From Owenia fusiformis (taxonomy: Eukaryota; Annelida; Polychaeta; Sabellida; Oweniidae): DNA of 64,000 nt. The position numbers were made by a program, and so were the translations under genes. Shown here in pieces: positions 58,701-61,986 of the stretch; within the stretch, counting starts at the first letter, position 1, and the number at the start of each line of letters is the position of its first letter. The stretch covers positions 16,196,931 to 16,260,930 of the forward strand of contig CAIIXF020000003.1 in assembly GCA_903813345.2 (NCBI GenBank), read 5' to 3'. Below the pieces are notes generated by a model, which worked only from the letters and a program-made list of their open reading frames with translations, searched no databases and was not told where the DNA came from.

Positions 58701-61700
58701 CACCTCACTAATCAGAACCAGATGAACACTTTTTCTTAGTTCAAATCTATAATCTCTCATCGACTACAATGTTAAAATATTGAAATGTGTCCACCTGCTA
58801 AGTGCTTATCCAAACACTTTTGGCAAGTGCAAGTAGTGTTCATATTAGACAGGTTTTATTGTTAGTACCTCAGTGTAAATACTCGCATCTGATTGGTCAA
58901 TTAGCGGTCAACATTTTTGCCTGTACCCCACCTGTGCATCATGGGATATCATATTATTGACCGCGTAAGTTACTGTACTACACTTGTGAATTATGGGAAA
59001 TATGACGTCATAATATTTACAGAAAAAAAACATGGGAGACAGACATTTTGTAAACGTTGATGAAAGTGATATTTTGACTTTGCTAGACGACAAGTATTGC
59101 AAAAATACAAATAGAAACGTAAAATTAACATTAATTGACTAGTGAGTACGCAGTGATGTGCCGAAAAAAGAGAGTTTTAGAGCTACCGCTGTCTTCAGAT
59201 TTTCTTACAAAATTATTGCTGGCGTGGTTCGGAGAAAAGATTGTGAAATGAAGCCATGATTGATGACTGTCGTCTATATGTGTATTATTAGTTTCTTCTG
59301 ACTAACAAAACAATTGTAGACCTCTCCATTCGGTCAACCGTCAAAATCATATACCTCGACTGTAAACCTTGAAACTACTGTTGACCTCGACCTTCGGTCT
59401 CTGTCAACAGTAGCTTCTCGGTTTACAGTCTCGGTATACAATTTTGCCGGTTGACCTCTGAAGAGGTCAACAATTGTATACTGTAATTTTCACGTCAGTC
59501 TCCTTACTTTTTAATAGAAGAATCTGGGTCCTTTAGACAATCTACTATTGTACTTCTGTGTCGTTGGACAGCATTATAGTCTGCATTTACAACACGAAGA
59601 AGTGTGTTTAGAGCCACATAGCGAATGTTTTTGTCATTATTTAGCAGGAAACGTCCTAGTATATTAACTGCTAACACCTGAAATAAAGCGATAGTAAATA
59701 ACTAAGATTTAAGTAATTACAGTGATAAATTAACAAAATTATTAAAAAGTATTCAAAGTATGTATGAATAGTGTTGGTTTATAAGATAATATTTTTTACT
59801 CCAACAGCAAAAGAATGTGTTTTCTCGTTGACAGATTGAATACATTTTTACTCTATCTTTATATGTATTGTCCATGTTTGAAATTTTCATTAAAATTAAA
59901 TCAACATTTCACAATTCATAACACATGTTTCGCACATGGTTATGGGTGCATTAGGAGATTACAGAGCTTTTGATTGGTCTATTAGAATGGATGCTTGAAC
60001 TCACAATGCACTCTTCTGAAATATTATTGATAATCTGTACTAAAGGAAAACATGTGAGAAAACCATATTATTTATAACAAATAGGCAATTATGTATGTCT
60101 AATAGTTAGAATTACATGATATACACTTGCAAAAAAAGTTTCACTTCAAAAATGTTTCCCATTGTATTGTCACCCACATTGTATTGTCACCCCATTTAAG
60201 CACAAGCTTTAATCGATTATAAGCCACACAATCATTTTACTTTGTATTCTAGGCTGAAAGTTACTGTCTTAATCTTAAAGCCTGTAGGCTGTATGCTAAA
60301 AAGTACTCATTTACTAATATAATATTTGCATAATAATTGTTCAAGAGATGTGATTACTATTTAATGTCTATTTTAAGGAAGATATTTCTTATGCTTGGGG
60401 GTTACAATGGCTATATTATTGTATATTTTTAAACAGTACAATCAATTATAGCTGAAGTTTTTTGTGATTCTTGGTTTAAGCATGATGTGCATATATGAAA
60501 ATAAATCAATTTGATATTTAATTTAACTTAATTTGTGCATTTCAACAATGGAGGGGTAAAATATAGCATTTTTCAACAATCAGACTTAACAGTGTTGGAA
60601 TGTCTTGCAAAATAGTGCATTAAGTATGCGTTTGTTTGGAACTGGAAATAGAAAACCTCACAAGTAGAACATTATTTTGACATTCCAAACGTGTTCCACT
60701 TTTTTGCTCTATAATAATAAAATAAAATAAAAAAATCCTAAATATAATGATTGACATTTTGATCCTGAAACAAACAAATAGTTTAAGTTTTTCTACCTAC
60801 CCTTAGTCCACTTTCAGATTTAATGTCCATTATAGTCATGACAGTTTCATATAAGATGGAATTACCCACATTTTTGCTGGTTTCTGTATTAGTGGCCACC
60901 TATGAACAAATATATGTGTGTAATAGGTGGTAGGAAAGGGGTGGTGGTGGGAAAGGGGGTGGTGGATATAAGGGGATGGTGGTGGGAAATCAAAGATATT
61001 GTGAGTGTGTGTGTTAGTCGCCATAGCAATGTCACTCAGGTCATTTTTTATTTCGTGCAAATTCTCAGTATGAATTTAAAGAGTCTGTATACAATCAATT
61101 GTCATATTACTTAGCCCAATTGTATGTGATTTACTCTCATATTATGCCATACTACTTTTGCATTTTCAAATGTGACCATTATGACGTTGAATTTATGACC
61201 TTATACATGCAGCTGCTTAGTATAAGGGGAACATTTCACATCTTCAGTTCTTGTAAAATATATGATAGATGTAAAGTTATTCAGTCACTGATATCGATAC
61301 TGTATTTTTTAATCAATATGTCATATAATAGATTGCACATAGTATTGTGCAGTGTTAAGATGTGAAATGTTTCTAAAAGCAAGATATTCAGGCCCCTTCG
61401 TACATTAAAGGGACCCGTTATAATATTTTAAGCAGAAAGAGACCCCATGTACTCACCACAAAATGGTCTCTAACAATTGTGTTAGTGCAAGCTATGTCTA
61501 AAATTCATCAGCAATGTAATATGTGCATATGCTCTAGAGCCATAAGAGCTGATAATTTTTAGAATCAACAAATTTGTACTATAGTCTACAATACCCCATG
61601 CACCAATTTACCCAAAATATGTGCTAGTTTTACATTATCAAGAAATATTATCAAGATAATGAAAGAACCTTATGGCCTCACCCCAGTTTTCCATTTCTCC

Positions 61701-61986: not shown

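What the first reader, a model, noticed from the sequence alone, without database searches (positions are those of the whole stretch)
60801..61986. Tandem-duplicated AP1G1 trunk exon, probably mutually exclusive
Two complete 99-nt, phase 0/0 exons with good acceptors and GTAGG(G/T) donors sit 988 bases apart at the same place in gamma-adaptin. The proximal one is almost identical to the vertebrate sequence; the distal one keeps 23 of 33 residues and both conserved ends. All substitutions keep the frame open, which suggests selection. Alternative use would create two AP-1 gamma trunks with different surface residues. I know of no description of this exon choice in AP1G1.
Basis: partly seen in the sequence, partly recalled or inferred. 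Interest (0 to 1): 0.85.

Follow-up and report, generated by a model that had tools for sequence, protein, structure and literature searches.

The report
Duplicated alternative exon in AP1G1 gene
A gene for a core part of a cell-trafficking machine carries two different versions of the same small exon side by side, both apparently kept by selection, so this animal can probably build two versions of that part by choosing one exon or the other.

Summary
On the minus strand AP1G1 (gamma-adaptin) has two 99-nt, phase 0/0 exons, D (61888-61986) and P (60801-60899), 988 nt apart, both aligning to residues 274-306 of solved AP-1 gamma-1 chain 4hmy_A. P matches that sequence at 31 of 33 residues, D at 24, and P and D agree at 23. 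D is not a dead copy: the 33 differences fall 7/4/22 by codon position, synonymous sites are saturated, similarity stops at the exon edges, and simulations with neutral D match in 0 of 16,500 runs, best omega tried near 0.1. Regulation is hinted at: D and P have the two most pyrimidine-rich of 14 acceptors, and P the longest AG-free gap of 806. Alternative use is likely. Strict mutual exclusion is inference: joint inclusion stays in frame, no U12 or steric block is seen, and intron pairing does not exceed shuffles. No RNA data or animal genome was available. The kind is well known; this gene seems a new instance as far as my paper searches reach.

The parts
61888..61986 (-). Exon D (first in transcript order), 99 nt, phase 0/0, [33 protein letters not shown]
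60801..60899 (-). Exon P (second in transcript order), 99 nt, phase 0/0, [33 protein letters not shown]; the ancestral-like version, 31 of 33 identical to the solved gamma-1 chain
60900..61887 (-). Intron between D and P, 988 nt, GT-AG
61987..62030 (-). Acceptor region of D: 44-nt AG-free zone, U-rich pyrimidine tract, highest pyrimidine content of the 14 acceptors measured
60900..61034 (-). Acceptor region of P: 135-nt AG-free zone, C-rich tract partly made of a minisatellite (60926-60989), CTAAC branch-point-like site with its A at -115
59508..59677 (-). Next AP1G1 exon ([23 protein letters not shown]...)
   Evidence: Pfam Adaptin_N
61230..61371 (-). Hairpin in the D-P intron with a 15-bp perfect stem (arms 61230-61244 and 61357-61371); role unknown
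49608..59677 (-). Remainder of the AP1G1 gene, to the stop codon (human residues about 307-822, human sequence recalled)

Best explanation
An old tandem duplication of one internal exon of AP1G1 left two selectively maintained versions of the gamma-adaptin trunk segment at human residues 274-306. Each mRNA takes one version, giving two AP-1 gamma trunks that differ at 10 of 33 residues. The default product is probably P; D, with a U-rich acceptor but a weaker donor, is probably used in particular tissues. SHOWN: the duplication, intact frames and splice dinucleotides, purifying selection on D since the duplication, unusual acceptors on both exons. INFERRED: that D is spliced into mRNA today, that inclusion is one-or-the-other, that the choice is regulated through the acceptors, and that the two forms of AP-1 differ in binding or stability.
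For: Both exons align end to end with the same 33 residues of AP-1 gamma-1. Differences are 7/4/22 by codon position (binomial p=9e-5 for third positions); dN about 0.19 with dS saturated. In 400-nt flanks on each side, the only significant similarity (E=1.6e-14; the next hits have E of 0.89 or more) runs from 3 nt before to 16 nt after the exon, so the introns have diverged past recognition while the exon has not. With P and D given equal time, neutral D gave 0 matches in 16,500 runs, while omega 0.05, 0.1 and 0.15 gave best match fractions of 0.18, 0.27 and 0.19. Taken neutrally to 9 amino acid changes, 0.5% of 20,000 runs kept the frame, both splice dinucleotides and changes as conservative as those seen. 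D keeps Ala14 like the solved chain where P has Ser, so the duplication probably predates that change. D and P rank 1 and 2 of 14 acceptors in pyrimidine content, and P has the longest of 806 AG-AG gaps in 15 kb. In human exons, AG exclusion zones of 100 nt or more go with cassette-type alternative splicing (68 of 235 against 47 expected; PMC1431707, passages).
Against: No transcript evidence. Both exons are multiples of three in the same phase, so including both or neither stays in frame; by contrast 60% of human clusters contain exons of length not divisible by three (PMC5740500, passages). Splice sites look like ordinary U2 type, the predicted branch region of P is far from D's donor, and intron pairing does not exceed shuffles. 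P's AG-free zone is partly a C-rich minisatellite. PTB-like motifs are not enriched (CTCTCT 1 against 0.8 expected, TCTT 34 against 31). D's donor scores 12th of 13 in a rough matrix. Many similar neighbouring exons are not mutually exclusive (PMC5740500, passages). No relatives could be compared.
Confidence: 0.74

Rival explanations
1. D is used but not exclusively: it is a cassette exon that can be included together with P, adding 33 residues to the trunk, or both can be skipped.
For: Length 99 nt and phase 0/0 keep the frame in every combination; no enforcing mechanism was found.
Against: Joint inclusion would insert 33 residues into a packed helical solenoid (structural inference, not tested). 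The conservative changes in D fit replacement of P better than an added segment.
Confidence: 0.13
2. D was a functional alternative exon until recently and is now unused, or is spliced only at noise level.
For: A recent loss leaves no mark in sequence; D's donor scores 12th of 13 in the gene with an approximate matrix.
Against: Intact frame and splice dinucleotides and the most pyrimidine-rich acceptor of 14.
Confidence: 0.1
3. D is a decaying duplicate that was never under selection, its open frame due to chance.
For: Only D's faster amino acid change (9 of 33 against 2 of 33 for P from the solved chain).
Against: 0 of 16,500 neutral runs match; 22 of 33 changes at third positions; flanking introns no longer alignable while the exon is.
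Confidence: 0.02
4. The second copy is an assembly or haplotype artefact.
For: The gene has minisatellites that copy pieces of two other exons, so local duplication happens here.
Against: The exons are only 67% identical in DNA and their 400-nt flanks show no significant similarity, too diverged for haplotypes or misassembly.
Confidence: 0.01

Closest known systems
Tandem duplicated exon substitution events / homologous mutually exclusive exons (236 analysed in human; PMC9741552, abstract and passages)
   Same: Adjacent homologous exons, conservative changes, both versions kept by selection.
   Different: Here there is no transcript evidence, and the gene is a clathrin adaptor trunk; neither AP1G1 nor adaptin occurs in that paper's main text.
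Alpha-tropomyosin and alpha-actinin exons with distant branch points (PMC1431707, passages and reference titles)
   Same: Downstream exon with a long AG exclusion zone and a branch-point-like site near its 5' end.
   Different: Here the intron is 988 nt, so the predicted branch point would not sit against D's donor and cannot exclude sterically.
AP1G1 neuronal microexon of vertebrates (PMC12626424, passages)
   Same: Alternative splicing of the same gene.
   Different: A microexon, not a duplicated 99-nt exon; the passages I saw do not give its position in the protein.
Competing RNA structures at mutually exclusive exons, Dscam type (PMC6071210, search listing only)
   Same: Duplicated exons chosen one at a time.
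   Different: No intron-intron pairing above shuffles here.

Membership tests
Homologous mutually exclusive exons | Neighbouring internal exons with sequence similarity | tested here: met
   23 of 33 aa, 66 of 99 nt; both map to AP-1 gamma-1 274-306
Homologous mutually exclusive exons | Similar length and same reading-frame phase, no in-frame stop, GT-AG sites | tested here: met
   99 nt each, phase 0/0, intact; criteria as in PMC5740500 passages
Homologous mutually exclusive exons | Both copies under coding selection | tested here: met
   D: neutral runs 0 of 16,500, best omega tried 0.1; P: 31 of 33 identical to the solved chain
Homologous mutually exclusive exons | Junction reads from each copy bridging the other | not testable with these tools
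   No RNA data held; no genome held for the window
Homologous mutually exclusive exons | No reads, or only non-productive reads, joining the two copies | not testable with these tools
   No RNA data held
Exclusion by frameshift and decay | Joint inclusion shifts the frame | tested here: not met
   99 nt is divisible by 3, phase 0/0
Exclusion by U2/U12 incompatibility | One U12-type splice site | tested here: not met
   Donors GTAGGG and GTAGGT, read by eye against the recalled U12 consensus; no scan was run
Steric exclusion by distant branch point (tropomyosin type) | Branch point of the downstream exon within about 50 nt of the upstream donor | tested here: not met
   AG-free zone of P reaches only -135 in a 988-nt intron, with CTAAC at -115; branch points are predicted, not mapped
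Competing RNA structures (Dscam type) | Docking site pairing with alternative selectors | tested here: inconclusive
   Best intron-intron duplexes lie within the range of 8 shuffles each; one species, coarse windows, first intron incomplete; a hairpin inside the D-P intron has z -4.26
AP1G1 (gamma-adaptin) gene | Collinear AP-1 gamma exons | tested here: met
   Matches to human 274-822 in order on the minus strand (human sequence recalled); Adaptin_N above cut-off for the next exon, while P alone is below cut-off and D has no hit

The most novel reading that the evidence does not exclude
AP-1 itself exists in two splice-selected trunk forms in this lineage. The D form places two histidines four residues apart (exon positions 13 and 17, human 286 and 290) and loses Asp 298 and Lys 300, and so could tune partner binding, a metal or pH response, or coat assembly in a tissue such as nerve. 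GCAUG elements at D's acceptor, inside D, and in both neighbouring introns (6 in 4.3 kb against 2.2 expected) would make the choice Rbfox-dependent.
Probability: 0.12. Interest if true: 0.7.

Novelty: new member of a known kind. Interest (0 to 1): 0.47.

Why it matters
AP-1 is usually thought of as diversified by separate subunit genes (from general knowledge). A maintained exon choice within the gamma trunk would add a splice-based way of making AP-1 variants, and offers ten natural substitutions in a highly conserved segment as a test of what that part of the trunk does.

Tried and rejected
Relatives: genome contigs and viral contigs gave none; those collections hold prokaryotes and viruses, so this says nothing about animals. 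The window's own genome is not held. Competing intron structures: nothing beyond shuffles. Rbfox motif: 4 UGCAUG in 4.3 kb of pre-mRNA against 0.76 by base composition, but 21 in 64 kb of the same strand predicts about 1.4, so it is weak, and it was one of 8 motifs tried. Donor ranking used base frequencies recalled and rounded. A paper search for trunk interface residues gave 3 listed papers that I did not open. AP1G1 disease variants: the passages seen say the reported pathogenic missense variants lie in the N-terminal region and name Arg15, Arg35 and Gly66 (PMC12610428). PMC9013439: outline only, not used. The neutral simulation assumes equal mutation rates in P and D, an ancestor like the solved chain, P at omega 0.02, a match window of 22+-2 third-position differences, 9+-2 D and 2+-1 P amino acid changes, and removes stops when omega is below 1; at omega 0.05 and 0.02 the best time was the longest tried.

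Full report
Observation. The minus strand of the window carries AP1G1. A tblastn search with human AP1G1 (recalled sequence) finds matches in order for residues 274 to 822, from 61986 down to 49611, with the stop codon at 49608-49610. The segment 274-306 occurs twice: P at 60801-60899 and D at 61888-61986, each 99 nt, phase 0/0, with AG acceptors and GTAGGT or GTAGGG donors, 988 nt apart. Among PDB chains at E<=10, each matches 6 distinct sequences, all AP-1 gamma-1, over all 33 residues and at the same place. In Pfam the 33-residue exons are too short to pass: P scores below the Adaptin_N cut-off, D gives no hit, and the next exon passes. The upstream partner exon lies beyond the window's end, so the first intron is incomplete; no third copy is seen in the window.

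Is D alive? P and D differ at 33 of 99 nt: 7 first, 4 second and 22 third positions (binomial p=9e-5 for third positions). Nei-Gojobori dN is 0.185 with dS undefined; the ML estimate is dN 0.196, dS 4.8; two other methods stopped with a math error. Comparing 400-nt flanks, the one significant match spans the exon plus 3 nt upstream and 16 nt downstream; the remaining 11 hits have E of 0.89 or more. The introns have thus lost their similarity while the exon kept it. P and D have had the same time: enough time to saturate third positions would have destroyed D had it been unselected. In simulations with an ancestor like the solved chain, P at omega 0.02 and D at varied omega over 11 times (1,500 runs each), neutral D matched in 0 of 16,500 runs; the best match fractions were 0.001 at omega 0.7, 0.011 at 0.5, 0.03 at 0.35, 0.08 at 0.25, 0.19 at 0.15, 0.27 at 0.1, 0.18 at 0.05 and 0.007 at 0.02. 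A second test took an exon neutrally to 9 amino acid changes: 67% had no stop, 57% kept both splice dinucleotides, 1.2% of the open ones had changes as conservative as D's, and 0.5% of 20,000 met all three; taken alone this test is moderate. D has changed faster than P (9 against 2 residues from the solved chain) but keeps the Ala14 that P has lost.

Splicing signals. Of 14 acceptors of the gene in the window, D (0.80) and P (0.70) have the highest pyrimidine content; the next is 0.68. P's AG exclusion zone is 135 nt, the longest of 806 AG-AG gaps over 15 kb of that strand (the next longest is 110); the other 13 acceptors have 22-86 nt. It holds a CTAAC with its A at -115. In human, zones of 100 nt or more mark exons more often observed as cassette-type alternative (PMC1431707, passages). 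Against this, part of P's zone is a C-rich minisatellite at 60926-60989, so its length may be partly accidental. Donors of both are middling to weak in a rough score (P 9th, D 12th of 13), though among the top 1.3% (P) and 2.9% (D) of all GT sites on the strand.

Mechanism. Alternative use is the natural reading of two maintained versions of one exon. Exclusive use is inferred from structure: adding 33 residues to a packed solenoid should be harmful (not tested). The sequence does not enforce exclusion: the frame allows any combination, splice sites look like ordinary U2 type, and the 988-nt intron leaves no steric conflict with the predicted branch region. Intron-intron pairing did not exceed shuffles (best -42.7, -38.5 and -36.0 kcal/mol; ranges of 8 shuffled bests -39.4 to -43.7, -37.1 to -45.3 and -32.9 to -39.4). 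A hairpin with a 15-bp perfect stem lies in the D-P intron (z -4.26, 0 of 200 shuffles as stable), but it was picked after seeing the repeat list. In human, 57 clusters (9%) are potentially steric, five (0.79%) are U2/U12 incompatible and 377 (60%) contain exons not divisible by three (PMC5740500, passages); the present pair falls in none of these groups. Regulated choice through the acceptors is my preferred mechanism, without a named regulator.

Known or new. Tandem duplicated exons chosen one at a time are a well-described kind, with mostly conservative changes (PMC9741552, abstract and passages). AP1G1 with mutually exclusive exons: no paper. Adaptin with exon duplication and mutually exclusive: none. 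The human surveys PMC5740500 and PMC9741552 hold no AP1G1 in the text searched. Other searches gave no such case among titles and abstract starts listed (25 of 45 papers listed, 15 of 59, where the term matched unrelated words too). A neuronal microexon of AP1G1 is known in zebrafish (PMC12626424, passages). Supplements and genome annotations were not searched. The species is not known, and no animal genome was available for comparison.

Noticed in passing
window 57956-58315: A 119-nt minisatellite (3 copies, 95% match) repeats the intron-exon boundary and first part of the AP1G1 exon containing [14 protein letters not shown], giving truncated acceptor-plus-exon copies upstream of the real exon.
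   Followed up: partly
window 56315-56632: A 101-nt minisatellite (3.1 copies, 95% match) likewise copies the boundary and the [17 protein letters not shown] part of another AP1G1 exon; two exon-boundary arrays in one gene suggest a local tendency to duplicate exon ends.
   Followed up: partly
window 20796-39738: On the plus strand an IMD domain (Pfam E=1.2e-14) and, 18 kb on, a WH2 motif below its cut-off suggest an MTSS1/MIM-like gene tail to tail with AP1G1; that both belong to one gene is inferred.
   Followed up: partly
window 61230-61371: Hairpin with a 15-bp perfect stem in the intron between D and P, possibly a small mobile-element remnant or a regulatory structure.
   Followed up: partly
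window 11513-11556, 40976-41038, 42542-42591: Nearly the same 17-nt unit (GGTGTTCACTAGAGACA-like) forms separate small tandem arrays at three places.
   Followed up: no
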